From contig JAKCEV010000008.1 in assembly GCA_023539495.1 (NCBI GenBank), positions 1 through 33,995 on the forward strand: a stretch of 33,995 bases of DNA. The letters are read 5' to 3'. Below, one piece after another: positions 4,130 through 21,168 of the stretch. The position numbers were made by a program, and so were the translations under genes. Origin of the DNA: Candidatus Wolframiiraptor allenii. Lineage in GTDB: Archaea; Thermoproteota; Nitrososphaeria_A; Caldarchaeales; Wolframiiraptoraceae. Numbering within the stretch: the stretch's first letter is position 1; every line of letters starts with the position of its first letter. A model generated the notes under the pieces. The model was not told the DNA's origin and searched no databases. It saw nothing but the letters and a program-made list of their open reading frames with translations.

Positions 4130-4152
4130 CAGAGCGTGAATAGGGACGGCTT

Positions 4153-4242
4153 GGGCCGGTAGTCTAGGGGCCATGACGCCGCCCTCACACGATCATCAGG
4201 AGGATACGGCGGAGGTCGTGGGTTCGAATCCCACCCGGCCCA
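4153..4242 (+). tRNA. tRNA-Val(CAC) with a ~17-nt intron at 37/38 (4190-4206)
   Basis: Same body as tRNA-Val(GAC). Anticodon CAC at 4186-4188; the intron CGATCATCAGGAGGATA must be removed to form CCGCC/GGCGG. Confidence 0.9.
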
Positions 4243-4325
4243 TATTATAGGATTTAGGATCTAGGATATATTCTAGCAGACATAATCTTTTTCAGGTCTC
4301 TCATCACCTATTTTGATGTAGTAAG

Positions 4326-4535: not shown

Positions 4536-5855
4536 TTGTATCGAGTTATGAGGTATGAGGAAAGGACCCGGGCTTCTAGAAGAATGTTTGAGAAAGCCTG
4601 TAGATATCTTCCCGGAGGAGTATCTTACTCTATAAGATACTTCGAGCCGTATCCAGTCTATGTCTCGGCTGCACGCGGCCAGAGGATCCGGGACCTTGAT
4701 GGAAATGAGTATACTGATTACTGGATGGGGCATGGCGCGTTGATCATGGGACATGGTTATCATCCGATTATCGAGGCGGCGGTAAGCCAGCTACGGGAGT
4801 ATGCCCATATCGGTTTTCCACATGAGTGGGAGGTTAAGCTGGCGATGCAGATATCAAGGATGGTTGAGAGCGTCGAGATGATGAGGTTCACGAATAGTGG
4901 GACGGAGGCGGCAATGTATGCTTGTAGGCTTGCTAGAGCATACACGGGCAGAAAGGTGATCGCGAAGTTCGAGGGCGGATGGCATGGCGGATACGACTGC
5001 CTCCATATAGGGGTTCAGCCGCCATATGAGGTCCCCGGAAGCTTAGGGATACTCGAGGAATCGCTCAGGTACACAATACTCCTGCCATTCAATGATCTCG
5101 AGGGTGTTGAGAAACGCGTGAGAAACCTCGATCTCGCGGCGATAATCGTCGAGCCTGTTCTCGGGGCTGGCGGAGCGATACCGGCTGAACCTGAATTCCT
5201 CAAAGGGTTACGGGAGATTTGCGATATGCTCGGCGCGCTCTTAATATTTGACGAGGTTATCACGGGTTTTAGACTGTCCCCCGGCGGGGCGCAGAAACTC
5301 TATGGCGTCAAGCCTGATCTAACGATCTTCGGGAAGATATTGGGCGGCGGGATCTTCCCGGCCGGGGGCTTTGGAGGGAGGGCTGAGATAATGGAACTTC
5401 TTGACCAGATAAGGCGTCCTCGACCGCATGAAAGGGCATTTCAGGGCGGGACTTATGCTGCGAACCCGCTGACCACAAGAGCGGGATACACGCTTCTCAA
5501 GGAGCTAGGGGAGAGACCTGAAATATATCAAAGACTTAATCAGCTTGGAGAATATGCTAGAAACGGTCTCGAAGATGCTTTCTCTAAGCATGGGTTGGCG
5601 GCTCACATCACCGGGATCGGCTCGATGATAGGGATACACTTCGCAAAGAAGAAGCCCCGAGATGCCAAGATGGCCCAGCAGATGAAGGATATGGAGATGG
5701 CTAAGAGATTCTTCAGACATGCACTGGAGAATGGAGTGATTTATCTGACACCCGAGATCCCGCATTTATTCATCTCCGCGGCGCACACCCGGGAGGACTT
5801 GGACAATCTAATATCGGTCGCGGAAGATTTTGTGAGGAGGAACGCTACTCCCTGA
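4536..5855 (+). CDS. Class III (HemL-like) PLP-dependent aminotransferase/aminomutase
   Basis: FEKACRYLPGGVSYSIR, RFTNSGTEAAMYACRLARAYTGR, LIFDEVITGFR, PDLTIFGKILGGGIFPAGGFGG (PLP lysine). Confidence 0.85.
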   Translation: MYRVMRYEERTRASRRMFEKACRYLPGGVSYSIRYFEPYPVYVSAARGQRIRDLDGNEYTDYWMGHGALIMGHGYHPIIEAAVSQLREYAHIGFPHEWEVKLAMQISRMVESVEMMRFTNSGTEAAMYACRLARAYTGRKVIAKFEGGWHGGYDCLHIGVQPPYEVPGSLGILEESLRYTILLPFNDLEGVEKRVRNLDLAAIIVEPVLGAGGAIPAEPEFLKGLREICDMLGALLIFDEVITGFRLSPGGAQKLYGVKPDLTIFGKILGGGIFPAGGFGGRAEIMELLDQIRRPRPHERAFQGGTYAANPLTTRAGYTLLKELGERPEIYQRLNQLGEYARNGLEDAFSKHGLAAHITGIGSMIGIHFAKKKPRDAKMAQQMKDMEMAKRFFRHALENGVIYLTPEIPHLFISAAHTREDLDNLISVAEDFVRRNATP

Positions 5856-7974
5856 AGTAAGGTTGGAGGAATGCTTTGGGCGGCCTCGCCCTCTTGCCAA
5901 GGACTGCCGAGATCGCGACGGTCAATAGGTATGGTATGGATTGAAAGAACTGGTATGGTAGCTGGACTATCGTGACAAGCCATGCTTGAAGGGCGTTTAG
6001 GAATCCGAAGAAGATGCATGCAAGCCATATCCATGCGGGGTTCCAGTTTCCGAGTACGACGAGGGCCATGGCTATCCAGCTCCACTCGCCGCCAACGTTT
6101 AGGTTGAATGATCTTAGGTCTATGAGCGAGTAGAATGCGCCTCCTATGGCCATCAGCGCGGAGCCTGCCAATATTGTATAATATCTCACCGCGTGAACCC
6201 TGATCAGGGATGAGTCCGCGGCTCTTGGGTTCTCGCCGACGGCCCTCAACATGAGGCCCCACCTAGTCTTAGACAGTATGAAGATTAGGATCAGTGGCAG
6301 GATGTATACCCCAGCATAGATATATAGACTCTGGCTGAAGGCTGAACCTATTATAGGCAGGTCTCCAAGGGGCCCAAGCTTTAAGGGAGGCGTGGCCGGG
6401 ACTGTCGGCTCGACTAGTGGCGACCCAATTAGTACACGGTGCACGAAGTATGTCAGGTTCATGGCGTAGAATGTTATCGTTATTCCCGAGATGTGCTGCT
6501 GGCATCCGAGGCTAACTACTAGGAGGGCGTGGAGTAGGCCGAGGAGCGCGCCGATGAGGGCCGCGGCCATTATCCCGATTAATATGCTGCCGGAGAGGTA
6601 GGCGGCCATGAAACCCCATCCAGCGCCGGCTATCATTATTCCGAGTATTCCAAGATTTAGAACACCGGTCTTCTCTATGAGCATCTCGCCTAAGGATGCG
6701 AAGATTATTGGCGTCGCCGAGACTAGCGTTAAGCCCACAATGCTGGAAATGATCCTCTCCAAGTAGCTTCCCCGGGTGATCACGCCGACAATCGCGAGGA
6801 TTACAAGCACCATAATTATGTAGAGCATTATCATTAGAGTCCTCCTGCTGGGGATGATCCGGAATGATTGGCGGCCACCATCTAGATTACTTGAGGCAAC
6901 GGGAGGCTTTTCGAGCCTAACAATTCTCCTGAGCCCGATGCGTATCCTGTATGTCGTGATGGCTCCTAGTATCAGGAAGATTATGAGGGTCTGTGCTTGT
7001 ATGAGGTCTGATAGGAATGATGGGACGCCAGTGTTCCAGCTCATGGCATTTGCGCCGTTTATCAATATGCTGAAGAATATTCCAGCTAATGCCGCCCCTA
7101 TCGGGTCGAGACCGCCGAGCATAGCTATCGCCAAGGCTATGAGGCCGTAGTTGGGGCCGACGAATGGCGTCATGTAAAATAGTATTCCGGTTACCTCACA
7201 TGCCCCGGCAAGCCCAGCAAGGCCGCCGCTGATAAAAGCTACCCAGAAGTAGATCTTCGGGAGGCTGAATCCCTCGAGCTCCGCAACCCTTGGCGAGGTC
7301 GCGGCTATAATCCAGTTTCTGAGAATGGTCCTATTCATTAGGATCCAGAGAACTCCTAGGATGATGAAGGGTACTATCACGCCTAGATGGAGTCGAGTTC
7401 CCGGGATGAGTATCGGGAGCTTCGCATTAGCTCCTATCTCGGCTGACTGTGGATAGGTGGTGTAAGGGGCTCTCATCGGCCCCGTGAGAAGGCCAGCGCA
7501 TATCTGGAGAACCGCGCTCCAGATTAGAAGTGTTGTCAAGACCTCATCTTGGTTGCGCTGGACCTTCAGCCACCAGCTCACGAGACATACGGCCGCGCCC
7601 CCAAGCCAGCTCAACATGAAGATTAGCGGTATCAGGAGCTGGGGCGGAAGATGCTTTAACTGGACTCCGACATATGCCGCGATTAGGCCGCCGATTATGA
7701 ACTGGCCATGTACTCCGAGGTTCCAGAACCTGGCCTTAAATGCGACTAGGATCGCGAATGCTAGGAGTACTAGCGGCGATGCAGTGACTAGGATTTCCGC
7801 GGGGTTCTCGAAGGGCCACGTGAGAAGATAATAGTATACTGCTCCAAGGTCTCCCCCGGCCATCAGGACATATATCGCGGAGGCTAGGATTGAAAGGATG
7901 ACTGCTAGAACGGTAATGCTCAGCCTCTTGATGGGTGTGAGGGCTCCTCTTCTCTCGAGGCTAAGCTCGAGCAA
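5845..7974 (-). CDS. BMP-family (nucleoside/sugar-type) ABC transporter permease, two permease domains fused
   Basis: 709 aa with two tandem BPD_transp_2-like halves. Operonic with the ATPase and BMP binding protein. Confidence 0.85.
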   Translation of the reverse strand: MLELSLERRGALTPIKRLSITVLAVILSILASAIYVLMAGGDLGAVYYYLLTWPFENPAEILVTASPLVLLAFAILVAFKARFWNLGVHGQFIIGGLIAAYVGVQLKHLPPQLLIPLIFMLSWLGGAAVCLVSWWLKVQRNQDEVLTTLLIWSAVLQICAGLLTGPMRAPYTTYPQSAEIGANAKLPILIPGTRLHLGVIVPFIILGVLWILMNRTILRNWIIAATSPRVAELEGFSLPKIYFWVAFISGGLAGLAGACEVTGILFYMTPFVGPNYGLIALAIAMLGGLDPIGAALAGIFFSILINGANAMSWNTGVPSFLSDLIQAQTLIIFLILGAITTYRIRIGLRRIVRLEKPPVASSNLDGGRQSFRIIPSRRTLMIMLYIIMVLVILAIVGVITRGSYLERIISSIVGLTLVSATPIIFASLGEMLIEKTGVLNLGILGIMIAGAGWGFMAAYLSGSILIGIMAAALIGALLGLLHALLVVSLGCQQHISGITITFYAMNLTYFVHRVLIGSPLVEPTVPATPPLKLGPLGDLPIIGSAFSQSLYIYAGVYILPLILIFILSKTRWGLMLRAVGENPRAADSSLIRVHAVRYYTILAGSALMAIGGAFYSLIDLRSFNLNVGGEWSWIAMALVVLGNWNPAWIWLACIFFGFLNALQAWLVTIVQLPYQFFQSIPYLLTVAISAVLGKRARPPKAFLQPYFRE

Positions 7975-9502
7975 TCTCCATCAGCCCGCTTATCATCATC
8001 CCAAGCTTCTCAACAGTTATCTCGGAGGGCTTGAATGTCCCGAGAATCCTCCTATTCGCGAATGCTGAGACCCTATCACATATTGCTAATAGCTCCTTCA
8101 GGTTCGGGGAAAATATTATCGTTGTTAATCCTCTCCGCCGCCTTTCCAAAACCCTGTCAAAGAACAACTTTACACCGCGTGGATCTAGACCTACGGTTGG
8201 GTGAAGGGCTATCAGGAGCTTATCCCACCTTCCTAGCACTCTCCCGATATATGTTCTCTGCATGTTTCCGCCCGAGAGTGTTTCAATGGGATCCTTCAAG
8301 TCCCTGAAAACCATCTGGAACTCGCCCGCAAGTCTCTTAGCAAGCCTCCTCCGCTTCTCCGGCTCAAGGAATATCCCATGTGAGAAGAGGCTCTCGCTCC
8401 CGATAGTGAGATTATCCTCTATGCTCGCCCCGAGGATCAGGCCATCCCGTATCCTATCATCCGAAAGGAATCCGACGCCGCGCCTCCTGAGCTCTGCCGT
8501 GCCTAGGCCGGTAACATCCTCGCCAAACAATATTATCCTCCCAGATGCGGACTTCCTAACACCATAGATGCATTCTGCCAGCTCTTTCTCCCCGGTCCCG
8601 GGCACAGCCGCTATCCCATGAATCTCCCCCTCAAAAATCTCGAGATCAAGATCCTGTACGACGACCTCGCCCCTATCATCCACGACAACCAGATTCTCAA
8701 GCCTCAGAGCCGTCCTCTCACCAGTTTTCTCCAAGATCTCAACCTCCTCCGATGGCTTGAAGTACTCCACCTCCTCAAACATGCTCTTGATGAGATCCTC
8801 GAGCCTGGCCTCTCTCGCATCGAATCTCGAGACTATCTTGCCGCCAGTCATCACGAGAATCTCGTCAACGACTTCGATCAGGTCCGAGAGATCATGGGAG
8901 ATGAGTATCATGGTATACCCGCGGCTGGTCAGCTCTCTCAGGTACTCGCTTATCCTCCGCTTCTGCTGCGCCGGGAGATAAGCCATGCTCTCATCCAGTA
9001 TCAGGACAGGCCTCCTCCCCATCTCATGGAGCATCTCACAGAGTATTAGGGCCCGGATGATCTCGAATGTCCTTAGCTGCCCTATCGGAAGCCTCTCTGC
9101 CGGCTGATCAAGATTGAGCTTAACGCCGATTTCACCAGCTATCCTCTCAGCCCTCCTCCTAACCCCATCTAGATCGGGCATTATGCCTGGATGAAGAAGC
9201 GCGAGTTGTTCGAGAAGCGTTAGAGCTGGAGCAAGGTTAGGATGCTGCTCAACTTTAACAACGCCTGCCTCGATCACCGCCTGATGATATTCCTTAATCC
9301 TAACATTATTGACAAAAACATCCCCGCGATCAGGTCTCAAGTATCCAGAGATTATGTTTGTCAGTGTTGATTTCCCAGCTCCATTGGGCCCAACGAGCCC
9401 GTAAACCCTGCCCCCATCAAGTTCCAAGGTGACATCATCTAATGCTGTTGCACCCCCAATGAAGGTCTTCCTCACATTTATCAGCCTGATCGCGGGGATC
9501 AA
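7961..9502 (-). CDS. BMP-family ABC transporter ATP-binding protein (two NBDs)
   Basis: NBD1 Walker A GPNGAGKST. NBD2 has signature LSGGNMQR and a degenerate Walker A (AVPGTGEKE). Confidence 0.88.
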   Translation of the reverse strand: MIPAIRLINVRKTFIGGATALDDVTLELDGGRVYGLVGPNGAGKSTLTNIISGYLRPDRGDVFVNNVRIKEYHQAVIEAGVVKVEQHPNLAPALTLLEQLALLHPGIMPDLDGVRRRAERIAGEIGVKLNLDQPAERLPIGQLRTFEIIRALILCEMLHEMGRRPVLILDESMAYLPAQQKRRISEYLRELTSRGYTMILISHDLSDLIEVVDEILVMTGGKIVSRFDAREARLEDLIKSMFEEVEYFKPSEEVEILEKTGERTALRLENLVVVDDRGEVVVQDLDLEIFEGEIHGIAAVPGTGEKELAECIYGVRKSASGRIILFGEDVTGLGTAELRRRGVGFLSDDRIRDGLILGASIEDNLTIGSESLFSHGIFLEPEKRRRLAKRLAGEFQMVFRDLKDPIETLSGGNMQRTYIGRVLGRWDKLLIALHPTVGLDPRGVKLFFDRVLERRRRGLTTIIFSPNLKELLAICDRVSAFANRRILGTFKPSEITVEKLGMMISGLMEIARA

Positions 9503-9518
9503 AGCGATCTCACCAGCC

Positions 9519-10757
9519 CTACTTCTTCGGCCTCATGGTTCTCCGCGCCAGCAAGGCTATCACTATAGCCTCGATTACGACCACCGCCGCCAGCACATAC
9601 GTCGTTATCTCGAAAATCTGTGCTGGTTGCTGGGACGTCATGCCTCCAGCCTGCCTAAGCTCCGGCCAAACTTGCTCCGGCGGCAGCTCGATTATTGGAA
9701 CCCAGGTCATCCCTGTTCTAATCTTATCCTCCCACTCCCTAACCAGCGCTAGGATATCTTCATTTAGCGGCGGGCTCGGCTTACCGAAGTGATGGAATGA
9801 GGCGAGATAAGATCCATTAAAGCTCATCCACGAGTATGTTCCGAGGTTATCGGCAGTATATGATCCCGATAGGACCCTATCGAAGACCACTCGGACCGTC
9901 GGCCTCATATCCCATATGAGACTTGTTATTGTGACTTCGGGCGCCCTCTCATATTGATCCGCCATGTTGCCTATGACCCATACCTCCCTGCCCGCGGCAT
10001 AAGCCTCCCTGGCAGCCTCTTCAGCCCCAACTCTCTCAGCGAAGATCACATCAACCCCACTATCTATCAAGGTCTTCGCCAGCCTCTTTGCGGTCGCTGG
10101 ATGATACCATGGAGACTCGCCTGGCGGAATATTGCCAAGTAGATAAACCACCTTTACCTCAACATTCGGGTTAACCATCTTGGCGCCATAGATGAATGCG
10201 TTGACGATCCTATTCACCTCGTTTATCGGCATCGCGGCGACAACACCTATCTTATTGGTCTTCGTGATCTTTCCAGCAATGATCCCTGCGAGGAATGCTG
10301 GCTGATGAAGCCAGTTATCAAAGACCGCGAAGTTCGGTGGGGTTGGGGAGTACTCGCTGCCGGCGGCGAAGGCTACATTCGGATAATCTTTCGCAACCCT
10401 CCTCGCGATATCCTCCTTAAGAAATGCATCGAGGAAGACTATATCAGCAACCTTCGCCGCGTCCCTAAGCGCGAGCTCGAACTCCTTGGGATCTTGCTTC
10501 CTATCCACAAACTGGTAATCAACCTCTATACCCTTCGCCCTATACTCCTCAGCGACGGCGAGAATTGCTTGGTGTATAGCTCCATCCCATGGCTCGCTAA
10601 CAGGCGTCTGGAAAACCGCCCGGACAACGAGCTTCCTACGCGCCTCTTGGCCTTCAGCGGATATCAGCGAAAACCCGGCGAGAATAATGCAAAGCGAAAG
10701 CAACACGGCGAGAAACGCTACCCGCCTCGCCGCAAAACTCCCACTCACTCGGGGCAT
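9519..10757 (-). CDS. BMP family substrate-binding protein with C-terminal membrane anchor
   Basis: N-terminal signal peptide; BMP/PnrA-like fold motifs (IAGKITKTNKIGVVAAMPINEVNRIVNAFIYGAKMVNPNVEVKVVYLLG); C-terminal TM YVLAAVVVIEAIVIALLARRTMRPKK. Confidence 0.85.
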   Translation of the reverse strand: MPRVSGSFAARRVAFLAVLLSLCIILAGFSLISAEGQEARRKLVVRAVFQTPVSEPWDGAIHQAILAVAEEYRAKGIEVDYQFVDRKQDPKEFELALRDAAKVADIVFLDAFLKEDIARRVAKDYPNVAFAAGSEYSPTPPNFAVFDNWLHQPAFLAGIIAGKITKTNKIGVVAAMPINEVNRIVNAFIYGAKMVNPNVEVKVVYLLGNIPPGESPWYHPATAKRLAKTLIDSGVDVIFAERVGAEEAAREAYAAGREVWVIGNMADQYERAPEVTITSLIWDMRPTVRVVFDRVLSGSYTADNLGTYSWMSFNGSYLASFHHFGKPSPPLNEDILALVREWEDKIRTGMTWVPIIELPPEQVWPELRQAGGMTSQQPAQIFEITTYVLAAVVVIEAIVIALLARRTMRPKK

Positions 10758-11309: not shown

Positions 11310-12113
11310 ATGAGCAATCAGGGCTTTAACATAATAGTCCTGATAAAGCAGGTTCCTGACATTGAGAAGGTTAGGTTCGATGTTGAGACGGGGAGGATTG
11401 ATAGGAGCTCAGCGCCCGGCGAGACAAATCCATTTGATCTACACGCTCTGGAGGCCGGACTACAGATTAAGGAAAGGTTTGGGGGGTTAGTCACCGTTAT
11501 TAGCATGGGGCCGAGGCAGGCTGAGTCCTCGCTTAAGGATGCCTTGGCCAGGGGAGCCGATAGAGCAATACTATTGACGGATGCTAGGCTGGCCGGAGCC
11601 GACACGATAGCGACCGCGAAGGCACTTGCCGCCGCCATTAAAAAGCTGGGAAAATTCGACCTAGTGCTCTGCGGTGAGAAGACTGTTGATGGCGATACTG
11701 GGCAGGTTGGCCCGGAGGTTGCCGAGCTCCTAGGAGTACCCCATGCGGCCTACGTCTGCGAGATCAGAGAGGTAACACGAGATAGCGTTAAAGTTGTCTC
11801 TGATATGGGCGACAAATATCTTTACGAGCTGAAACTGCCAGCCCTGTTAACTGTAACTAGGGAACTCAACTCGCCAAGGCTCCCGACATTAAAGGATCTC
11901 CTAAGGGCCAAGAGATTGAATGTTGAGATCTGGACCGCCGACCATCTCTCAGAGATAATCCCAGTTAATCAGCTTGGTTTCCAGGGATCTAAGACTAAGG
12001 TTGTTAAGGTTGTGATACCAAGCACGGAGCATAGGAAGGGGTTGATACTAAAGGGCGATGACGCGGTTGAGAAAATCGGCGAGATAATCTTGAGGGAGGT
12101 GGCTGGTGGATGA
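11310..12113 (+). CDS. etfB: Electron transfer flavoprotein beta subunit
   Basis: IIVLIKQVPD...CGEKTVDGDTGQVGPEVAELLGVP. Confidence 0.92.
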   Translation: MSNQGFNIIVLIKQVPDIEKVRFDVETGRIDRSSAPGETNPFDLHALEAGLQIKERFGGLVTVISMGPRQAESSLKDALARGADRAILLTDARLAGADTIATAKALAAAIKKLGKFDLVLCGEKTVDGDTGQVGPEVAELLGVPHAAYVCEIREVTRDSVKVVSDMGDKYLYELKLPALLTVTRELNSPRLPTLKDLLRAKRLNVEIWTADHLSEIIPVNQLGFQGSKTKVVKVVIPSTEHRKGLILKGDDAVEKIGEIILREVAGG

Positions 12114-13093
12114 CTGGGATACTCATATACGCCGAGGCCAATGGCCCCGAGATACATCCAATATCATTCGAGCTCCTTGGAAAGGCTAGGGAGCTGGCCG
12201 AAAAGCTCGGGCTGGAGGTCTGGAGCGTGGCCCTCGGATGCAGAATCTCGGATAAGGCCTCCGAGCTAATATATCATGGCGCTGACAGGGTCTACATCTA
12301 TGATGATGAAAGGCTCCGGGATCTAAACGTTGTAGCATACAAGAATGTGCTCGTGGAACTTGTGAGGGAGACTAAGCCGGAGATCTTCCTCCTCGGCGCG
12401 ACTCCTTGGGGCCGGAGCCTAGCTCCAAGGGTGGCCGCAGCCCTTGATACAGGCCTAACAGCGGACTGTATAGATCTCCAAGTCAGCGAGAATGGAAAGC
12501 TCATTCAAATAAGGCCCGCATTCACTGGGAACATCCTCGCGCATATAGAGACTGTTAGCAAACCAGTTATGGCCACCATAAGATATAGGGTAATGAAGAA
12601 GCTTCCCCGAGACGTAAATAGGAGAGGGGAGATAATAGTCCGCAGGCTCGAGGAGATAGACTGTGATGGGATAAAATGCTTGGGAAAAGTGTCGGAGAGA
12701 GGGATAAGTCTTGCTGATGCAGAGATAGTGGTTGCTGGCGGAAGGGGCTTGAAGAAGAAAGAGGATCTAAAGATGCTGGAAGAACTAGCAAACCTGATTG
12801 GTGGTGTTGTCGGGGCGAGCAGGCCATTAGTCGAGGAGGGTTGGATATCAAAGGATCACCAGGTCGGCTTTAGCGGAAACGTTGTCAAGCCAAAGCTATA
12901 TATCGCGTGTGGGATATCTGGCTCGCCACAGCATCTAGCTGGAATGAGGGACTCAAATATAATAATAGCGATAAACACTGACCCATCAGCGCCAATTTTC
13001 AGGCATGCGGATTATGGCGTGGTTGCCGACCTCTACGACTTCATGCCAAAACTCATTAACTATCTAAAAGAGAGGACTGGAAAAACTGCATAA
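12110..13093 (+). CDS. etfA: Electron transfer flavoprotein alpha subunit
   Basis: C-terminal FAD domain GISGSPQHLAGM...NIIIAINTDPSAPIFRHADYGVVADL; ATGA overlap with etfB. Confidence 0.92.
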   Translation: MTGILIYAEANGPEIHPISFELLGKARELAEKLGLEVWSVALGCRISDKASELIYHGADRVYIYDDERLRDLNVVAYKNVLVELVRETKPEIFLLGATPWGRSLAPRVAAALDTGLTADCIDLQVSENGKLIQIRPAFTGNILAHIETVSKPVMATIRYRVMKKLPRDVNRRGEIIVRRLEEIDCDGIKCLGKVSERGISLADAEIVVAGGRGLKKKEDLKMLEELANLIGGVVGASRPLVEEGWISKDHQVGFSGNVVKPKLYIACGISGSPQHLAGMRDSNIIIAINTDPSAPIFRHADYGVVADLYDFMPKLINYLKERTGKTA

Positions 13094-13133
13094 ATAAAAA
13101 TGGCTTAAATAACGGTTGCAGTCAATCAAGCGG

Positions 13134-15020
13134 TTACTTTATTCTCTCCAAGAGCCTCTTATATGCCTCGAATTTGCTTTCCTCCAAGCATTTCATGAGC
13201 CCGAGTCTCTCAAGAGTCTCCCTTTTCGGGTAACCATCCGGATTCCATCCCCGATACTCATAGTATTCTTTCAACATTCTATCCAGCTCAACGACTTGGC
13301 CTGCAGCTCCACCATCAGATAGGGGTTCTTTGAGCAATCTCTCAGGGAGCTTATCGTCCTCGCCACTCATACCGCATGCCAAGTTGAATAGCCTCTTCAG
13401 GTTGAAGATCGCCGTTCCTCTTTGATGCAGGTCTTTTGCAGTGGCCTTTCTCCCCGTGGCTAGCGAGTAGACTGAGGCGACGTGTCCAGGGGTTATCATG
13501 AGAAACTTACATATCCCTAGAGACTCAATGACATCATGCCAGTCCTGCATTATCGCCACAATCCTACCCTTCCCATCCACGTCAAACCTCCAGACCCTCT
13601 CATGTATCCCTAAATCCGTTACCCTCTCACCCTGCTCTATCCTGAAGACAAGACCATATAGGTGGTCCGCGCCCCTATTGGATGTCGCATACTGAAGCCC
13701 CATTCCTTTAAACGCCCTAGGATCATGCATGGGTATCTCGAGACCCTTAGAGTGCATTGCAAATGATTCCGATCCCTTAACCTCCTTAGATGCTTCTCTC
13801 ACACCCCTCGCTAATAACTCCCCAATACCTTCTCTTTTCGCGATCTTCATAATCAATTCTTCAACGAGCTTATGATCTCCCCATTTGGGCCTGATTCCAC
13901 CTAATCTTTCATTACTTATCAGTCCTTTTTCATATGCCTCTATAAACCATGCTACGACAACGCCGGTTGAGATCGCATCTACGCCGAGCTTATTACAGAG
14001 CTGATGCAGCTTCGCCACCTTCGCGGGGTCGCTTATCAGGAGAAGGGATCCTAAAGCCCCTATGCTCTCATATTCAATGGCCCTCCCAACAACTTTCTCT
14101 CCATCAACCTCACAGTCAACATATCTCCAGCACCCTATTGGGCAATTGAAGCAGGCTCTATGTCCTTTAACTATCCTCTTTGCTACTTCCTCGCCCTCTA
14201 GATTGCGTACCTCATCCCATGTTCCCATACTGAAGTTTTTTATCGGAAGATCTCCATAGGTATACATTGGCCCAACTTCGGCGGTCGTGCCATATGTCGA
14301 ATAGAGCTGCGTGGTTGGGAAAGACATTATTGATGGAAGTATCCTCTTAAGGTATTCTCTTAGGCTGGGTAGATTCTCCACCTCGACTTTGCCCGAACCT
14401 TTCACCGCTATTGCCTTCAGGTTTTTAGAACCCATGACGGCGCCCATACCACATCTTCCAGCAACCCTCGGACCATCCGGCCTAACATCGAAGAATACCC
14501 CCGCGATGCTGACGAGGTTCTCGCCAGCTGGGCCTATGATTGCGCATCTAACATTCTCGCCAATAAGCTTCTTCAACTCGATATCAGCTTCATAAGTATC
14601 TAGGCCCCAAAGCTTACTGGCATCCCTAATCTCTACCTCCCCGTCATGGATATAGATGTATACCGGTTTCTCCGACCTCCCGGTCACAACTATCCCATCA
14701 TATCCAGCTCTCTTCAGCTCGGTGCCCCAGAAGCCTCCAGCATGAGCCTCGCCCCAGCCCCGTGTTAACGGAGACTTCGCCGCCACAGTCATGCGAGCTC
14801 CAGTCGGCATTATTGTCCCGGTTAGAGGCCCAGTCATGAAGACAAGGGCATTCTCCGGTGAGAGCGGATCCACTGTAGGATCCACCAAATCGAATATCAG
14901 CCTAGCGGCCAGCCCGCTTCCACCAAGGAAGTTCACAAGATATTCTTCCGGAATCTCTTTAGCCTCCACCTTGCCATCGCTAAGGTTAATATACGCTATT
15001 TTCCCACAATAGCACTTCAT
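13134..15020 (-). CDS. Tungsten-type aldehyde:ferredoxin oxidoreductase family (AOR-1)
   Basis: FLGGSGLAARLI, GRCGMGAVMGSKNLKAIAVKG, CFNCPIGC cluster motif and a distal Cys (LACGMSGEDD). True start probably 15020 (MKCYCGKIAYINLSDG). Confidence 0.9.
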   Translation of the reverse strand: MKCYCGKIAYINLSDGKVEAKEIPEEYLVNFLGGSGLAARLIFDLVDPTVDPLSPENALVFMTGPLTGTIMPTGARMTVAAKSPLTRGWGEAHAGGFWGTELKRAGYDGIVVTGRSEKPVYIYIHDGEVEIRDASKLWGLDTYEADIELKKLIGENVRCAIIGPAGENLVSIAGVFFDVRPDGPRVAGRCGMGAVMGSKNLKAIAVKGSGKVEVENLPSLREYLKRILPSIMSFPTTQLYSTYGTTAEVGPMYTYGDLPIKNFSMGTWDEVRNLEGEEVAKRIVKGHRACFNCPIGCWRYVDCEVDGEKVVGRAIEYESIGALGSLLLISDPAKVAKLHQLCNKLGVDAISTGVVVAWFIEAYEKGLISNERLGGIRPKWGDHKLVEELIMKIAKREGIGELLARGVREASKEVKGSESFAMHSKGLEIPMHDPRAFKGMGLQYATSNRGADHLYGLVFRIEQGERVTDLGIHERVWRFDVDGKGRIVAIMQDWHDVIESLGICKFLMITPGHVASVYSLATGRKATAKDLHQRGTAIFNLKRLFNLACGMSGEDDKLPERLLKEPLSDGGAAGQVVELDRMLKEYYEYRGWNPDGYPKRETLERLGLMKCLEESKFEAYKRLLERIK

Positions 15021-15022
15021 CC

Positions 15023-15691
15023 TTAAATCCCCCAATACTTCTTGGCAACCTCTATCTCTTCTGGCGGAACCTCCGGAGGCTCCCTCCCTAAGGTATAGCA
15101 AACGAACTCTATGGTGGCTATCGCCTCGAGGAGCTCCACTATCGCCTCCGCTTCTAGTAAATTTGTTCCGAGAGCGAGGACTCCATGATTCTTCAGGATT
15201 ATTGCGCGCGCGCCTCTTGATGCGGCCTGAGCAACGGCCTCGGCCAACTGAGTGGTTCCCGGGAACTTAAACTCGATTTCCTCAATTCTCCTAAGCAATA
15301 GAACCGCCTCATCCGTTATGGTCGTTTTAATTCTCTTGCCAGCGAGGGTTAATCCTAGGACCATAGGGTTATGGGCATGCACCACCGCGTTGACATCGGG
15401 TCTAACTTTGTAGACTGCCGCATGCATGGGCCACTCGATAGACGGCTTGAGAAACCCCTCAACAAGATCGCCATCAAGATTAAGCTTGACAAGGTCATCG
15501 GGCTTGAGAGCACCCTTGAAGACCTGGCTTGGAGTTATCCAGAATTCTCTCGCCCCGGGAATCCTTGCGCTAATATTGCCGCCTAGGGCCGTGATCAGAG
15601 ATCTCTCATAAAGCGTCTTCGAGATCCTGATAATCTCCTCCTTAAGCTCATCTTCTGAGAAGAGTTCAAACTCGCTCATAGATCCGATCAC
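15023..15691 (-). CDS. Class II aldolase, L-fuculose-1-phosphate aldolase-like
   Basis: GGNISARIPG, VVHAHNPMVLGLTLAG (HAH metal site), IILKNHGVLALG. Immediately upstream of AOR-1, same strand. Confidence 0.85.
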   Translation of the reverse strand: MIGSMSEFELFSEDELKEEIIRISKTLYERSLITALGGNISARIPGAREFWITPSQVFKGALKPDDLVKLNLDGDLVEGFLKPSIEWPMHAAVYKVRPDVNAVVHAHNPMVLGLTLAGKRIKTTITDEAVLLLRRIEEIEFKFPGTTQLAEAVAQAASRGARAIILKNHGVLALGTNLLEAEAIVELLEAIATIEFVCYTLGREPPEVPPEEIEVAKKYWGI

Positions 15692-15772
15692 CTAAAAATC
15701 TATTCAGCAGATTAAAAAACTTATACTCTCATGAGGCTCTCCAGCAACAGGCTTTCTCAGATGTTCTAATGA

Positions 15773-15787
15773 GATATTTTAAATATC
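15773..15787 (+). promoter_or_regulatory. Palindromic TATA-like element upstream of the FGGY kinase
   Basis: GATATTT-T-AAATATC perfect inverted repeat centred ~26 nt upstream of the TTG start at 15806, consistent with a leaderless transcript. Confidence 0.45.
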
Positions 15788-15805
15788 ATCGAGCATGAGG
15801 ATGCT

Positions 15806-17329
15806 TTGACGGATATGATGAGCCAGAAGCAGGATCTTGTTTTAGTTTATGATTGTGGTTCTACGAATCTTCGAGTGCTGGCTATGAATTCCCATGGGGA
15901 GGTTATTGCTCATAGGAGGGAGTCGAATTCCACTAAGCCCCAGCCAGGCGGCCACCCAGAATGGCGTATTTGGGACCTTGACGAGATATGGAAGAAGCTG
16001 TGCATGCTTACGCGCGGGGTGCTATTCGATCTCGGAGACAAGTATAGGGTTGCTGGCGTGATAGTCACTACTTGGGGGGCTGATGGCGTGTTCGTTGATG
16101 AACGGGGCAACCCAACCTACCCCGCGATATCATGGCAGTGCCCCAGAACTAGGGAGGTTATGGATTATGTCCGGGAGCTGATTGAACCGTGGGATGTCTT
16201 CAGGATAACGGGATACCAGTTCATATCATTTAATACGATTTTTAAGTGGATCTGGATCAGGAAGAATGCTCCGGATGCGATAAAGAGGGCTAAAGCATTC
16301 CTCATGATCCCCCATTACATATCATACAAGCTCACGGGGGAGTTTCATATCGAGCCAACAGATGCCTCGACAACCATGGCGATGGATCTGGCTAAGAGGG
16401 ACTGGTCGGATGAGATGCTATCAATAGCTGGGGTTGATCGGGCAATATTTCCGGAGTGGAGAGAGCCAGGAGACTATGCTGGCTATGTAACCGAGCAGGC
16501 GAGTAGGGAGACGGGCCTGAAGAAGGGCCTCCCTGTAATAGTCGGCGGCCATGACACGCAATTCGCGATCTTCGCGGCTGGCGCCCAGAGGGATGAGGCC
16601 ATACTCTCGAGCGGAACATGGGAAATACTCTCATTCAGATCGGAAGAGTACTTCGCGAGTAGAGATGCTTATGAGCATGGCGTAGTTGTTGAACTTGACG
16701 TTGAAAAGAACAAATGGAACCCGCAGTTCCTGATGATAGCATCAGGCGTCTTAGAATGGCTTAGCAGGGTAGCATACCCTGAATCCGAGAAAAAGTATGA
16801 GTTGATGGTTGAGGAGGCGTTACAAATTCCTCCAGGATCGGAGGGTGTATTCTTCCTTCCAAGCTTTTTCCCCGGCTCCGGCCCCACCGGTAAATACGGT
16901 GTCCTAGGCACAATCGTAGGGTTAACATTATCGGTTACCAGAGCGCATCTGTATAGGGCCGCTCTAGAGGGACTCTCATATCAACTGAGGCTCGCATTAG
17001 AGCTTCTGGAGAGGTCGTTCAACATAAGATTCTCGGCTATACGTGTGGTTGGGGGTGGGTCGAGAAACGAGCTATGGAACAGGATTCGGGCGAGCGTCAC
17101 CGGGAGAAAGATAATCACGAGCAGCTTTGCTGAGACAACGGCCTTAGGTGCGGTAGTCGTGGCCTTCAAGGGTATAGGGCTATTCAGAACCTTCGAAGAG
17201 GCGAGGGAAAACCTAGATTACGGCTTAAAAGTAGTCGAGCCTGAAAAGGAACGGGCAATATATGAGGAAGGCTATGAGCGGTATCTCCGGCTATATCAGA
17301 GTCTTTCCAAGTTTTTCAAACGAGAGTAA
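15806..17329 (+). CDS. FGGY-family carbohydrate kinase, L-fuculokinase-like
   Basis: LVYDCGSTNLRVLAMN, TTWGADGVFVDERGNPTYPAISWQCPRTREVMD, GGHDTQFAIFAAGAQRDEAILSSGTWEIL, strongly FucK-like. TTG start. Confidence 0.85.
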   Translation: MTDMMSQKQDLVLVYDCGSTNLRVLAMNSHGEVIAHRRESNSTKPQPGGHPEWRIWDLDEIWKKLCMLTRGVLFDLGDKYRVAGVIVTTWGADGVFVDERGNPTYPAISWQCPRTREVMDYVRELIEPWDVFRITGYQFISFNTIFKWIWIRKNAPDAIKRAKAFLMIPHYISYKLTGEFHIEPTDASTTMAMDLAKRDWSDEMLSIAGVDRAIFPEWREPGDYAGYVTEQASRETGLKKGLPVIVGGHDTQFAIFAAGAQRDEAILSSGTWEILSFRSEEYFASRDAYEHGVVVELDVEKNKWNPQFLMIASGVLEWLSRVAYPESEKKYELMVEEALQIPPGSEGVFFLPSFFPGSGPTGKYGVLGTIVGLTLSVTRAHLYRAALEGLSYQLRLALELLERSFNIRFSAIRVVGGGSRNELWNRIRASVTGRKIITSSFAETTALGAVVVAFKGIGLFRTFEEARENLDYGLKVVEPEKERAIYEEGYERYLRLYQSLSKFFKRE

Positions 17330-17445
17330 TCGGAGGCAACACCCTAACTTGGGTTAGTCAAAATCATGCTTGAAAGTAGATGACGAAACGGTTAAACGCC
17401 AGATTTATATCATCTTGCCTACCTTTGCCTAAACTGATAGGGTGA

Positions 17446-18831
17446 GTGGGAGAGGTGAGGCGGGAGGCAATAGAAGAGCTTAAATCAATCGTTGGGGATG
17501 AGTGGGTTGTATCTGCTAGGGAGGCTATCGAGGGATACTTGTATGATGAGACCCCCATGCCTATTAGGCCCGAGGCATGCGATGACGTTGTCGTGGTTAA
17601 GCCTGGGAGCGCTGAAGAGATATCAAAGATACTCCGGCTCGCGAACAAGTATCTGGTTCCAGTTTTTCCTAGGGGTGGGGGGACGGGCCTCGCTGGGGCA
17701 TGTATCCCAACCATTAGCGGGATAATCCTGTCGCTTGAGCGGATGAATAAGATCATCGTTGATGTTGATAATTTGATGGCTGAGGCCGAGGCTGGGGCAA
17801 CGCTCAAGGATCTTATTGAGGCCGCTGATAGGGCGGGCTTATCCTTTCCGCTTCATCCAGGAGATGAGGGTGCTCAGATTGGCGGATTAATAGCGTGTAA
17901 CGCTGGTGGCGCTAGGGCGATTAAAACCGGCATAATGAGGAACTGTGTTAAGGGGATTGAAGTTGTCCTGCCAACAGGCGAGATTGTTAGGCTAGGTGGA
18001 AAGGTTCTGAAGAATAATGTCGGCTATGACCTGATGCATCTGATTATCGGCAGTGAGGGGACGCTTGGAGTGATAACCAAGGCTTGGATAAGGCTCCAGC
18101 CTAAGGATGTTGCCTCCGCCACGATAATCATCCCATTTGAGGAGAGGGAGCAAGCTCTGGGAATGGTTCCAAGGATATTCAGGGAGGGGATAGTGCCCTT
18201 AGCCATAGAATATGTTGAGAGGAACCTCGTCGAGATGGTTGCGAAAAGCCTTGGGCTTAAATGGCCATGCACCTCGGCGGAATACCAATTGATAGTCATT
18301 CTGTCCGAAACCTCTGAGGACGCGCTCCTCGGCACCCTAGAGAGACTTCTCAACCTCTGCGAGAAGTCAGGTGCCCTCGAGCCTGTGGTAGCGGAGACAA
18401 GGAAGGAGCAGGATGAGATCCTGAAGATCAGGAGCGAGATCTACTCTACCCTCAAGCCGAATATGGTTGATATACTAGATGCAACCGTCCCTCCAGCTAG
18501 ATTAATAGATCTGATAGAAACCGTGAACGAGCTTGAGAGAAAGCACGGCGTTTACATGCCCGTTTATGGACATGCGGGGGATGGGAACCTACATGTGCAC
18601 CTGATGAAGTGGAATGGATGGACTAAGGAGAGATACGATGAGCTTAGAAGCATAATTTATGCTAGGGCCCTCGAGCTCGGAGGGACGATAACCGGGGAGC
18701 ATGGTATAGGATACGTTAGGAGAAAGTATGTTGAGATGGTGCTCGATAGAAAATCGATCGAGCTCATGAGGGCGATTAAGAGAATCTTCGACCCAAATAA
18801 CATATTAAACCCTGATAAGGTTCTGCCATAA
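17446..18831 (+). CDS. FAD-binding oxidoreductase, GlcD/D-lactate dehydrogenase family
   Basis: VFPRGGGTGLAGACIPTISGIILSLERMNKI, LKNNVGYDLMHLIIGSEGTLGVIT, PVYGHAGDGNLHVHL, TGEHGIGYVRRKY. Confidence 0.9.
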   Translation: MGEVRREAIEELKSIVGDEWVVSAREAIEGYLYDETPMPIRPEACDDVVVVKPGSAEEISKILRLANKYLVPVFPRGGGTGLAGACIPTISGIILSLERMNKIIVDVDNLMAEAEAGATLKDLIEAADRAGLSFPLHPGDEGAQIGGLIACNAGGARAIKTGIMRNCVKGIEVVLPTGEIVRLGGKVLKNNVGYDLMHLIIGSEGTLGVITKAWIRLQPKDVASATIIIPFEEREQALGMVPRIFREGIVPLAIEYVERNLVEMVAKSLGLKWPCTSAEYQLIVILSETSEDALLGTLERLLNLCEKSGALEPVVAETRKEQDEILKIRSEIYSTLKPNMVDILDATVPPARLIDLIETVNELERKHGVYMPVYGHAGDGNLHVHLMKWNGWTKERYDELRSIIYARALELGGTITGEHGIGYVRRKYVEMVLDRKSIELMRAIKRIFDPNNILNPDKVLP

Positions 18832-18838
18832 GTGATGG

Positions 18839-20614
18839 TTACTTCACGTGATTATGCTTTTTGACGATGTTATCGAATTCTTTAAGCGCTTCCTCAAAAT
18901 ATTCTTTTGAGATCTTTCCAAGCGGTGTCGGCGTTTCAGTTATCCTTTTTGGTATTCTTAGATTACTTGCTCTGAAACCCTCCTCCCACTTTAGCCTCTG
19001 CTTCTCGAAGTATATCTCCCTCCCAAGCTTCCTAAGATCCGCTGAGGAGTAGCTGTAGCCGAGGCTTCCCAGTGCCTCTGAAGTGAGGTTCTCGTCATAG
19101 ACCCCCCTAGCGAAGAGGCATAATACGAGTGATGTGAGGACCTGCCTCCAGGCCTCCTCTTCGATGATCTTCTGAACTGCTTCTCGTGGACTTGGTAGCT
19201 CCTCACCCGAGGAGAATATTCTCTGGTCTAGGGAATATGCGCCGGAGTCTAGGTGTGAGTGTCTGAAACCTATCGCGAGGGAGATGAAGAATAGTGGGCC
19301 GGTCAGGTATCCGGCCGGCTCAACCTTGTTGAAGGACATGGCGAAGTCCTCTCCACCATATCTTTTAGCTGCCTCCTCGACACCCATTGCGAGGACTTTA
19401 TAGAATTCGTTGGGTTGCCTCACGATATTCTCTATAGCTGCTACGTAGCTCCTCCAATTACCCCACCTGAGATCCACAAGTGTCTCGGATTTCGTGATTA
19501 GGCCGCGTTCAAGGGCCTCCGTCGCCCATGCCAAGATAACTCCTGTGGAGATTGCATCAAGACCCCAGTCCTCCACAGCTTTAAAGAGCTTGAGGAGGCC
19601 GAATCTATCCTTGACTCCGAGGTTTGTGCCGAGGGCATAAATGGGCTCATAATCATATGATATGAACTCGGTCTTATACATGAACTTCTCATCCTCATAT
19701 TCCTCTCTTATGGCTGCGAGGTGTATGCAGGCAACGGGACATGCTGAGCAGGCGACTCTGCGCGCGAGCACGTTCTCGACCAAGGCCTCACCGCTAATCT
19801 CCCCAGCCCCATCAAACCTACCCGAGCTGAAGTTCTTCGTGGGTAGAGCTCCTATCGCGTCGAGGACGAGCACGTTCTCCGCGGTCCCGAGGTCGTGATA
19901 CTTCTTGGTCTTTGGGCCCTTAGCGAGATCATAGATCTTCTGGTAGATGTCTCGGTAGCGCTTCATGTCCGGGAACCTGTAGACCTTTCCCGGGGCTATG
20001 ACTATGGCCTTAAGCTTCTTGGAGCCGAAGACCGCGCCGAGGCCCATCCTCCCGAAGTGGCGGAAAGTTTCAACCATGACCATCGCGTATCTCACTAGCT
20101 TCTCTCCAGCCCCACCTATCCTAAGAATGCTCCTCACCCCAGCTCCCGGTGTAATTTCCCTGAGTATTCTCCCGACGGTCTCGGCGCTTCTAACGCCCCA
20201 GAGAGCGCTCGCATCTCTAAACCTCACTCGATCAGGCTCTATCACGAGGCATATCGGCCTCTCGCTCACACCTCTTATCACGATCGCGCCATATCCCGCG
20301 AACCTTATCGCCGATGCTGACCTTCCACCCGCATGGGACTCCGCGAAATAGCCATTTAAGGGAGACTTGAAGACCGCTATAGTCTTCGATGCCATCGGAA
20401 ATACGCCAGTCAATGGGCCGACAGCGAATATTATCGTGTTCTCCGGGCCAAGTGGGTCGGCAGCCCTCGGGACCTCCTCCTTATAGAGCTGGGACGCTAC
20501 ACCTATTCCGCCAAGCCACTTACCGAAGAGGTCCTCGCGATCCTCAACCCAATACCTTTTCCTAGCCAAGTCCACGTAAAGCACTCTTGAGAGCGTCTTC
20601 ACCCAGTCGCTCAT
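18839..20614 (-). CDS. Aldehyde ferredoxin oxidoreductase family protein (AOR-2)
   Basis: GRMGLGAVFGSKKLKAIVIAPG, CSACPVAC cluster motif, distal Cys in VLCLFARG. Overlaps the ferredoxin gene by 4 nt. Confidence 0.9.
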   Translation of the reverse strand: MSDWVKTLSRVLYVDLARKRYWVEDREDLFGKWLGGIGVASQLYKEEVPRAADPLGPENTIIFAVGPLTGVFPMASKTIAVFKSPLNGYFAESHAGGRSASAIRFAGYGAIVIRGVSERPICLVIEPDRVRFRDASALWGVRSAETVGRILREITPGAGVRSILRIGGAGEKLVRYAMVMVETFRHFGRMGLGAVFGSKKLKAIVIAPGKVYRFPDMKRYRDIYQKIYDLAKGPKTKKYHDLGTAENVLVLDAIGALPTKNFSSGRFDGAGEISGEALVENVLARRVACSACPVACIHLAAIREEYEDEKFMYKTEFISYDYEPIYALGTNLGVKDRFGLLKLFKAVEDWGLDAISTGVILAWATEALERGLITKSETLVDLRWGNWRSYVAAIENIVRQPNEFYKVLAMGVEEAAKRYGGEDFAMSFNKVEPAGYLTGPLFFISLAIGFRHSHLDSGAYSLDQRIFSSGEELPSPREAVQKIIEEEAWRQVLTSLVLCLFARGVYDENLTSEALGSLGYSYSSADLRKLGREIYFEKQRLKWEEGFRASNLRIPKRITETPTPLGKISKEYFEEALKEFDNIVKKHNHVK

Positions 20615-21021
20615 ACAGCCTCCACCTCCTGAAGCGTTATTACTTTATGGGGGCAGAACTGGGCACAATACCCGCAGTAGACGCAGACTATGGGCTTCCC
20701 GGTCTCCTCATCCATCCATATTGCGCCTATATCGCACGCCTCGACACAGTGGCCGCAGCCATTACATCGCTCGGGTCTCAGGATGATTCCTCCACCAGGT
20801 CTCGGGATCAGCGCATCCTCAGGGCATACTCTGGCACATGGAGGATCCAAGCACGCCCTACAGACAACTACGGTGAAGCCCCTCTCAACGCCGCCGGCAC
20901 TACGAACCCTGATCGCCGACTTCTCATACCCGGCGAAGCCCAGCCTCCTAGAGCAGGCGAGCATGCAAAGCTGGCACCCAACACACCTATTTGCATCAAG
21001 AATCGCCAGCCTCTTAACCAA
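20611..21021 (-). CDS. 4x[4Fe-4S] ferredoxin subunit of AOR-2
   Basis: CVGCQLCMLAC, CRACLDPPCARVCP, CNGCGHCVEAC, CVYCGYCAQFCP: 16 Cys, four cluster motifs. Confidence 0.88.
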   Translation of the reverse strand: MVKRLAILDANRCVGCQLCMLACSRRLGFAGYEKSAIRVRSAGGVERGFTVVVCRACLDPPCARVCPEDALIPRPGGGIILRPERCNGCGHCVEACDIGAIWMDEETGKPIVCVYCGYCAQFCPHKVITLQEVEAV

Positions 21022-21168
21022 AGAGTAACCCTCAAATGATTAGAAAAGCCGCCAGCTTTAAACATTTTCTAAAGTCGTCACACAATACATAACACATATT
21101 ACATGATGGACTCCTCGTCGGGACGAACCCAAAAACTATTAAACTGGGTATTCCCTAGAGAAATAACA

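What the first reader, a model, noticed from the sequence alone, without database searches (positions are those of the whole stretch)
11310..21021. Candidate ferredoxin/ETF-coupled deoxy-sugar (or pentulose) catabolic island: FucK-like kinase + FucA-like aldolase + AOR + GlcD + EtfBA
Seen: EtfB-EtfA, AOR-1 and class II aldolase (3-nt gap, same strand), a divergent FucK-like kinase, a GlcD-type FAD dehydrogenase, and AOR-2 with a ferredoxin subunit, all contiguous. Known: FucK/FucA yield DHAP + L-lactaldehyde; AORs oxidise aldehydes with ferredoxin; GlcD-family enzymes oxidise lactate/glycolate, and LDH-EtfAB complexes (Acetobacterium woodii type) can confurcate reduced ferredoxin and lactate electrons to NAD+. 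EtfB has VDGDTGQVGPEVAE, resembling the anaerobic/bifurcating ETF class rather than the QTGQM class. Inference: aldehyde oxidation via AOR makes reduced ferredoxin that LDH/ETF then uses. Alternatives are glycolaldehyde/glycolate from ribulose-1-P, or acetaldehyde from 5-deoxyribulose-1-P. No fucose isomerase is in the window.
Basis: partly seen in the sequence, partly recalled or inferred. Interest (0 to 1): 0.72.

Follow-up and report, generated by a model that had tools for sequence, protein, structure and literature searches.

The report
Archaeal lactate-oxidation locus with sugar-aldehyde cassette
A heat-loving tungsten-dependent archaeon carries genes for what looks like a ferredoxin-coupled lactate-oxidising enzyme complex and a lactate racemase, with a kinase-aldolase-tungsten-oxidase set inserted into the operon that could feed it lactate from a sugar, a combination not described for these archaea in the papers I could search.

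Summary
All eight genes are there. The window is from Wolframiiraptor (Caldarchaeales); W. gerlachensis has the same order.

Across 61 genomes EtfB-EtfA-GlcD is a compact conserved operon (13 other genomes, six genera). In the window and W. gerlachensis it is split by AOR1-FucA-FucK. GlcD's nearest solved relative is the lactate dehydrogenase LctD of A. woodii Ldh-EtfAB. EtfB keeps the bifurcating b-FAD motif, and this genome shows one EtfA. So the GlcD-EtfAB part is well supported.

It is a variant. EtfA has no ferredoxin domain, the EtfB NAD motif and SPT anchor are altered, and four LctD pocket positions are changed.

It co-occurs with EtfBA-GlcD, which favours lactate over glycolate. FucA-AOR is a recurrent gene pair, which favours aldehyde hand-over.

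The sugar half is weaker. The full cassette is in three of eight congeneric genomes. The only clear FucI homologue in this genome is broken. LarA-bearing Wolframiiraptor lack LarBCE.

Best reading: aldehyde to L-lactate (AOR), D-lactate (LarA), pyruvate (GlcD-EtfAB); AOR ferredoxin pays for the last step. Substrates and bifurcation are inferred.

The parts
11310..12113 (+). EtfB, bifurcating-class ETF beta subunit
   Evidence: b-FAD motif DGDTGQVGP; best PDB hits are the five bifurcating EtfBs at 158-188 bits, against 81 bits or less for canonical ones
12110..13093 (+). EtfA, alpha subunit without N-terminal ferredoxin domain
   Evidence: best PDB hit LctC 7qh2_A, 290 bits, from LctC residue 73 onward; residues matching D189 and R205 kept
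13134..15020 (-). AOR1, tungsten aldehyde:ferredoxin oxidoreductase
   Evidence: AFOR_N and AFOR_C; PDB 1aor 440 bits; adjacent to FucA in G003, G004, G001 and G058
15023..15679 (-). FucA-like class II aldolase (ketose-1-phosphate aldolase)
   Evidence: Aldolase_II 157 bits; SIEWPMH, VVHAH and KNHG motifs; below the FucA curated cut-offs
15806..17329 (+). FucK-like FGGY kinase (start likely 15815 or 15818)
   Evidence: TIGR02628 fuculokinase 419 bits (cut-off 470.9), xylulokinase 241
17446..18831 (+). GlcD/LctD-type FAD 2-hydroxyacid dehydrogenase
   Evidence: 7qh2_C LctD 320 bits, next best 226; catalytic residues kept, pocket changed
18839..20614 (-). AOR2, tungsten aldehyde oxidoreductase
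   Evidence: AFOR_N and AFOR_C; PDB 1aor 251 bits; tail-to-tail with GlcD in four other Wolframiiraptor genomes
20611..21021 (-). four-cluster ferredoxin subunit of AOR2
   Evidence: 16 Cys in four CxxC-type groups; hits 9mqx_E and 8c0z_C, Fe-S subunits of AOR complexes
2786..4060 (-). LarA, nickel-pincer lactate racemase homologue
   Evidence: NF033504 475.3 bits, cut-off 460; PDB 2yjg 338 bits; lactate-racemase residues mostly kept; co-occurs with EtfBA-GlcD
5845..10757 (-). BMP/PnrA-type ABC importer (fused permeases 5845-7974, ATPase 7961-9502, binding protein 9519-10757), divergent from EtfB
   Evidence: PF02653, PF00005, PF02608; conserved near EtfBA in G002, G003, G005 and G010, and near LarA in G004

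Best explanation
The locus is a lactate-oxidation module with an aldehyde-producing cassette placed inside it. GlcD and EtfAB form a soluble flavin complex that oxidises a D-2-hydroxyacid, most likely D-lactate to pyruvate. Electrons pass from the GlcD FAD to the EtfA FAD and then to the EtfB b-FAD, where they are probably merged with electrons from reduced ferredoxin (confurcation) to reduce a nicotinamide carrier. LarA interconverts L- and D-lactate. FucK and FucA turn a ketose into a ketose-1-phosphate and split it into dihydroxyacetone phosphate plus an aldehyde, most likely L-lactaldehyde. AOR1, encoded directly after FucA, oxidises that aldehyde to the acid and reduces ferredoxin. The ferredoxin made by AOR1 equals what the lactate step consumes, so the two halves would balance (lactaldehyde + 2 NAD+ to pyruvate + 2 NADH). 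Shown: gene families, operon structure, motifs, co-occurrence. Inferred: complex formation, confurcation, every substrate, and the direction of flow.
For: EtfB-EtfA-GlcD is co-directional and near-contiguous in 13 of 61 genomes in six genera, and split in the window and G003 only by AOR1-FucA-FucK. This genome has one EtfA hit. GlcD is nearest LctD, and the LctD catalytic residues R328, D346, H377, H384, E422 and H423 are kept in all 15 proteins. The b-FAD stretch is kept in all 16 linked EtfBs (last Pro replaced by Ala in four) and absent from 12 unlinked ones. The 16 form one clade, 100/99 support. LarA is above the lactate-racemase cut-off; 14 of 15 EtfBA-GlcD genomes have a LarA-family hit against 6 of 46 others (Fisher p = 2e-8; by genus 6 of 6 against 6 of 23, p = 0.002). 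LarA lies in the same block in G000, G003, G004 and G005. FucA-AOR pairs recur in G001, G048 and G058, and LarA lies beside an aldolase and AOR in G049 and beside an AOR in G026. Confurcation stoichiometry is that of A. woodii Ldh-EtfAB (PMC9232219; PMC12630350).
Against: EtfB lacks Arg at the R87 position and has Leu for Phe89; the SPT anchor reads SKT. Mutating R87/F89/G91 or SPT in A. woodii removed or strongly cut NAD-coupled activity (PMC9232219). EtfA lacks the ferredoxin domain that is essential in A. woodii. GlcD pocket positions 155, 332, 344 and 386 differ from LctD in all 15, so lactate is not assured. LarB, LarC and LarE above cut-off are missing from this genome and the other LarA-bearing Wolframiiraptor. 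The only clear FucI homologue in this genome is broken. FucK and FucA score below curated cut-offs. The full cassette is in only three of eight congeneric genomes. A GlcD-type Ldh can also use a canonical ETF (Fusobacterium nucleatum, PMC12630350).
Confidence: 0.5

Rival explanations
1. Pentulose/glycolate route: FucK makes D-ribulose-1-phosphate (or xylulose-1-phosphate), FucA gives glycolaldehyde, AOR1 gives glycolate, and GlcD-EtfAB oxidises glycolate to glyoxylate.
For: The haloarchaeal FucA homologue is a ribulose-1-phosphate aldolase of broad aldehyde range (PMC9700705). GlcD has Tyr at the LctD Leu332 position, as in glycolate oxidase 9qgz. A BMP-type importer (family linked to nucleoside uptake) sits beside EtfB. 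W. gerlachensis prefers xylose (PMC9246946).
Against: Glycolate is achiral and would not need LarA, yet LarA tracks EtfBA-GlcD. LctD beats glycolate oxidase as nearest relative, 320 against 203 bits.
Confidence: 0.22
2. Two independent units that happen to be neighbours: EtfBA-GlcD plus LarA uses lactate from outside or from methylglyoxal, and FucK-FucA-AOR1 is an unrelated sugar cassette that landed inside the operon.
For: EtfBA-GlcD and LarA occur without FucK, a close FucA or AOR1 in G005. FucA-AOR1 stands apart from EtfBA-GlcD in G058 and G001. FucI is broken here.
Against: The cassette lies against EtfBA-GlcD in two different arrangements (G000/G003 and G004). In G049 LarA, an aldolase and an AOR are adjacent.
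Confidence: 0.22
3. The ETF is a simple electron carrier and does not bifurcate; GlcD passes two electrons through EtfAB to another acceptor.
For: R87/F89 and SPT motifs are altered and there is no ferredoxin domain. F. nucleatum Ldh works with a canonical ETF (PMC12630350).
Against: The b-FAD motif, including the Gly that makes room for the flavin, is kept in all 16. The nearest solved EtfA and EtfB are all bifurcating.
Confidence: 0.15

Closest known systems
Ldh-EtfAB (LctBCD) of Acetobacterium woodii, PDB 7qh2
   Same: EtfB-EtfA-dehydrogenase gene set; nearest solved GlcD and EtfA; catalytic His and metal ligands; b-FAD motif; a lactate racemase gene also occurs in described bacterial lct clusters (PMC12630350)
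   Different: no EtfA ferredoxin domain, RxFxG and SPT motifs altered, pocket positions 155/332/344/386 changed, archaeal, interrupted here by AOR1-FucA-FucK
E. coli type FucK-FucA L-fucose pathway
   Same: FucK-like kinase divergent from a FucA-like aldolase with the Glu and His motifs
   Different: below family cut-offs, aldehyde apparently oxidised by a tungsten AOR (no FucO or AldA at the locus), isomerase broken in this genome
Haloarchaeal ribulose-1-phosphate aldolase (non-carboxylating pentose bisphosphate pathway, PMC9700705)
   Same: archaeal FucA homologue making DHAP plus a small aldehyde
   Different: there the aldehyde is reduced to ethylene glycol; here an AOR is encoded beside the aldolase
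AOR with polyferredoxin subunit (9mqx; Aromatoleum AorAB, 8c0z)
   Same: AOR2 plus a four-cluster ferredoxin
   Different: no AorC-like FAD subunit found at the locus

Membership tests
Ldh-EtfAB confurcating lactate dehydrogenase (LctBCD) | EtfB-EtfA-Ldh gene linkage | tested here: met
   contiguous in 13 relatives, split in the window and G003
Ldh-EtfAB confurcating lactate dehydrogenase (LctBCD) | Ldh catalytic His423, metal ligands His377/His384/Glu422, Arg328 | tested here: met
   all kept in 15 of 15 proteins
Ldh-EtfAB confurcating lactate dehydrogenase (LctBCD) | lactate-pocket residues Leu332, Glu344, Tyr386 | tested here: not met
   Tyr, Ile, His in 15 of 15
Ldh-EtfAB confurcating lactate dehydrogenase (LctBCD) | EtfA ferredoxin domain | tested here: not met
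   the EtfA match begins at LctC residue 73
Ldh-EtfAB confurcating lactate dehydrogenase (LctBCD) | ferredoxin-dependent lactate:NAD+ activity | not testable with these tools
   needs protein
Bifurcating ETF | EtfB b-FAD motif DGDTxQVGP | tested here: met
   DGDTGQVGP; in four relatives the last residue is A
Bifurcating ETF | EtfA Arg205 contacting b-FAD N5 | tested here: met
   QIRPAF aligned with LctC
Bifurcating ETF | EtfB NAD motif RxFxG and SPT anchor | tested here: not met
   ARLAG and SKT in the window; the first R kept only in G049 and G057
LarA lactate racemase | curated family score | tested here: met
   475.3 against cut-off 460
LarA lactate racemase | catalytic and cofactor residues, Phe-Phe loop and Trp358 | tested here: met
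   D72, R75, H108, H174, F175, F176, K184, H200, K298 and W358 equivalents kept, by reading the alignment to 6c1w
LarA lactate racemase | LarB, LarC, LarE for cofactor synthesis in the genome | tested here: not met
   none above cut-off in G000
L-fuculose-1-phosphate aldolase (FucA) | Zn-binding His and catalytic Glu motifs | tested here: met
   SIEWPMH, VVHAH, KNHG
L-fuculose-1-phosphate aldolase (FucA) | curated family score | tested here: not met
   122.7 against 250 for NF040649
L-fuculokinase (FucK) | curated family score | tested here: not met
   419.3 against 470.9; still the best family by far
L-fucose pathway | working fucose isomerase in the genome | tested here: not met
   only clear FucI homologue at G000:C48 lacks about 54 internal codons and changes frame
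Tungsten AOR | AFOR domains and CxxCxxxC...C cluster ligands | tested here: met
   both AORs

The most novel reading that the evidence does not exclude
A new archaeal kind of ETF-dehydrogenase complex. It keeps the bifurcating flavin but has a remodelled nicotinamide site and no ferredoxin domain, so it may use a different carrier or a direct link to the AOR ferredoxin, forming a closed aldehyde-to-ketoacid ferredoxin loop. Its LarA partner would work with a scavenged nickel-pincer cofactor, since the genome lacks LarBCE.
Probability: 0.2. Interest if true: 0.8.

Novelty: new variant of a known kind. Interest (0 to 1): 0.57.

Why it matters
Lactate oxidation by a confurcating Ldh-EtfAB complex is known from bacteria; my searches found no paper placing it in archaea with a racemase and tungsten enzymes. 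If right, Wolframiiraptor would use tungsten AORs not only to harvest ferredoxin for its hydrogenase but also to pay for lactate oxidation, which adds a testable reason for its tungsten dependence. The altered EtfB nicotinamide site (the key Arg is missing in 14 of 16 linked EtfBs) is a natural variant for asking what a bifurcating ETF needs. LarA without LarBCE raises a plain question about where the nickel-pincer cofactor comes from.

Tried and rejected

L-ribulose-5-phosphate epimerase instead of aldolase: less likely, since the motif is SIEW (Glu, aldolase type) and not the Asp I recall for AraD.

5-deoxyribose salvage: not favoured, because that route phosphorylates the sugar before isomerisation (PMC6079011 abstract), while the kinase here is a ketose-type FGGY.

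ISO2 (G000:C72) as fucose isomerase: its best family is sulfoquinovose isomerase (166 bits, cut-off 700), and Fucose_iso_C hits of the same strength occur in G002 and G005, which lack this FucK.

FucK neighbours in G053 (amidase, CofD, nucleoside phosphorylase-like) gave no clear pathway; in G004 a second FucK sits beside a RhaI-like isomerase, ribulose-phosphate epimerase, ferredoxin and AOR, which suggests ketose use but not which ketose.

The EtfB tree did not resolve which solved bifurcating ETF is sister to this clade; several branches are long.

Papers on lactaldehyde together with aldehyde ferredoxin oxidoreductase: none in the library. Structure prediction was not run, because only single chains were allowed and the open questions concern complexes and ligands.
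Full report
What was checked. The window is contig 25 of a 1.3-Mb archaeal genome (G000). Its closest named relative is Candidatus Wolframiiraptor gerlachensis A8 (L002; FucK 91% identical), of the Caldarchaeales. The junctions are tight: EtfB-EtfA overlap by 4 nt, FucA to AOR1 is 2 nt (AOR1 starting at 15020), AOR2 and its ferredoxin overlap by 4 nt, and GlcD and AOR2 end 7 nt apart.

Conservation. I searched 61 genomes (own plus 60 relatives) with EtfA, FucK, FucA and the two AORs and mapped gene order. EtfB-EtfA-GlcD is contiguous or nearly so, on one strand, in G001, G002, G004-G007 and in more distant G023, G026, G049, G051, G053, G057 and G058; G002 has a 0.3-kb gap before GlcD. Only in the window and in W. 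gerlachensis (G003) are EtfA and GlcD separated by AOR1-FucA-FucK. In G004 the order is AOR1-FucA (-), FucK-EtfB-EtfA-GlcD (+), AOR2 (-). In G002 and G005 EtfBA-GlcD meets AOR2-Fd tail to tail with no FucK, close FucA or AOR1 beside it. So EtfBA-GlcD is the old core and the kinase-aldolase-AOR1 set is an addition. FucA-AOR pairs recur away from EtfBA-GlcD, in G001, G048 and G058, and with serS between them in G056.

The dehydrogenase-ETF pair. GlcD's best solved relative is LctD of the A. woodii Ldh-EtfAB complex (320 bits, next 226), and EtfA's is LctC. Compared with residues named in PMC9232219, the Ldh catalytic set R328/D346/H377/H384/E422/H423 is kept in all 15 GlcDs, but M155, L332, E344 and Y386 are replaced in all 15, the last three uniformly by Y, I and H. 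EtfB keeps the DGDTxQVG b-FAD stretch in all 16 (final Pro becomes Ala in G023, G026, G049 and G057), while 12 unlinked EtfBs lack it. The RxFxG motif reads A-R-L-A-G in the window; the first Arg survives only in G049 and G057. The SPT anchor is SKT here. EtfA has no ferredoxin domain, as in Bcd-EtfAB. By tree the 16 linked EtfBs are one clade (100/99), but its place among solved bifurcating ETFs is unresolved. I infer that GlcD and EtfAB work together (about 0.9) and that they bifurcate or confurcate (about 0.7).

LarA. The gene at 2786-4060 scores 475 bits against a cut-off of 460 for nickel-dependent lactate racemase, is nearest solved lactate racemases, and by reading that alignment keeps the catalytic, cofactor and Phe-Phe/Trp residues listed in PMC7583248. 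It sits in a block with a glutamate-semialdehyde-aminotransferase-like gene and a BMP-type ABC importer in G000, G003, G004 and G005, with EtfB next in line in G000 and G003 and on the same contig in G005. A LarA-family hit occurs in 14 of 15 EtfBA-GlcD genomes and 6 of 46 others; relatedness inflates this, but by genus it is still 6 of 6 against 6 of 23. Some of these hits are weak (27-38% identity) and may be other racemases; with a stricter set the counts are 9 of 15 and 1 of 46. A racemase favours a chiral acid, so lactate over glycolate. Against this, LarB, LarC and LarE above cut-off are missing from G000 and the other LarA-bearing Wolframiiraptor; genomes with LarBCE mostly lack LarA.

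The sugar half. FucK is nearest the fuculokinase family but below its cut-off, and FucA is a competent-looking class II aldolase without a clear substrate. A FucI homologue exists in G000 (C48), but relative to 72%-identical full-length proteins it lacks about 54 codons and changes frame. It is found only in genomes with EtfBA-GlcD (6 of 6). W. gerlachensis FucA carries a one-base insertion, in a low-coverage contig, so this may be an assembly error. An ORF with a weak GH106 rhamnosidase match (42 bits) lies upstream of EtfB in G049, and an ORF of similar size in G057. The ketose could be 6-deoxy (fuculose, rhamnulose) or a pentulose; I lean to the former only because of LarA.

Mechanism. AOR on lactaldehyde would give one reduced ferredoxin (two electrons) and L-lactate; LarA gives D-lactate; GlcD-EtfAB would use one reduced ferredoxin and two NAD+ as in A. 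woodii. The two steps balance. Everything past gene family, motif and linkage is inference. The W. gerlachensis paper (PMC9246946) counts six tungsten oxidoreductases and routes their ferredoxin to a membrane hydrogenase; its main text does not contain the terms lactate, aldolase, electron transfer flavoprotein, glycolate or a word beginning 'fuc'. Culexarchaeia have been credited with GlcD as lactate dehydrogenase and, separately, with EtfAB for beta-oxidation (PMC9723716).

Verdict. The single-island idea and the fucose route are only partly supported. I file it as a new variant of a known kind, not as a member of LctBCD, because several LctBCD features were tested and not met.

Noticed in passing
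G000 and relatives: LarB, LarC and LarE occur together in about a dozen of 61 genomes that mostly lack LarA, while LarA-bearing genomes mostly lack them; G051 has both.
   Followed up: partly
L231:1960-3320 (G000 contig 48): FucI-like isomerase with an internal deletion of about 54 codons and a frame change compared with 72%-identical relatives.
   Followed up: partly
L002:9221-9875: W. gerlachensis A8 FucA has a one-base insertion against the window copy; contig coverage is low.
   Followed up: partly
window 21103-22143: Aldo-keto reductase between the ferredoxin and TmcA genes is absent at that place in L002 and L168, so it looks specific to this genome.
   Followed up: no
L170 (G007 contig 44), G006 contig 9: AOR2-Fd follows an FGGY kinase, xylulokinase-type in G007 (TIGR01312 575 bits, cut-off 380), and in G007 lies beside the BMP-type importer.
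   Followed up: partly
L232 (G000 contig 72), L240 (G003 contig 23): A sulfoquinovose-isomerase-like gene next to a ribulose-phosphate-epimerase-like gene, 94% conserved between the two genomes.
   Followed up: no
window 4152-4243: ARAGORN reports a tRNA-like gene with a two-base anticodon; possibly an intron-containing archaeal tRNA.
   Followed up: no
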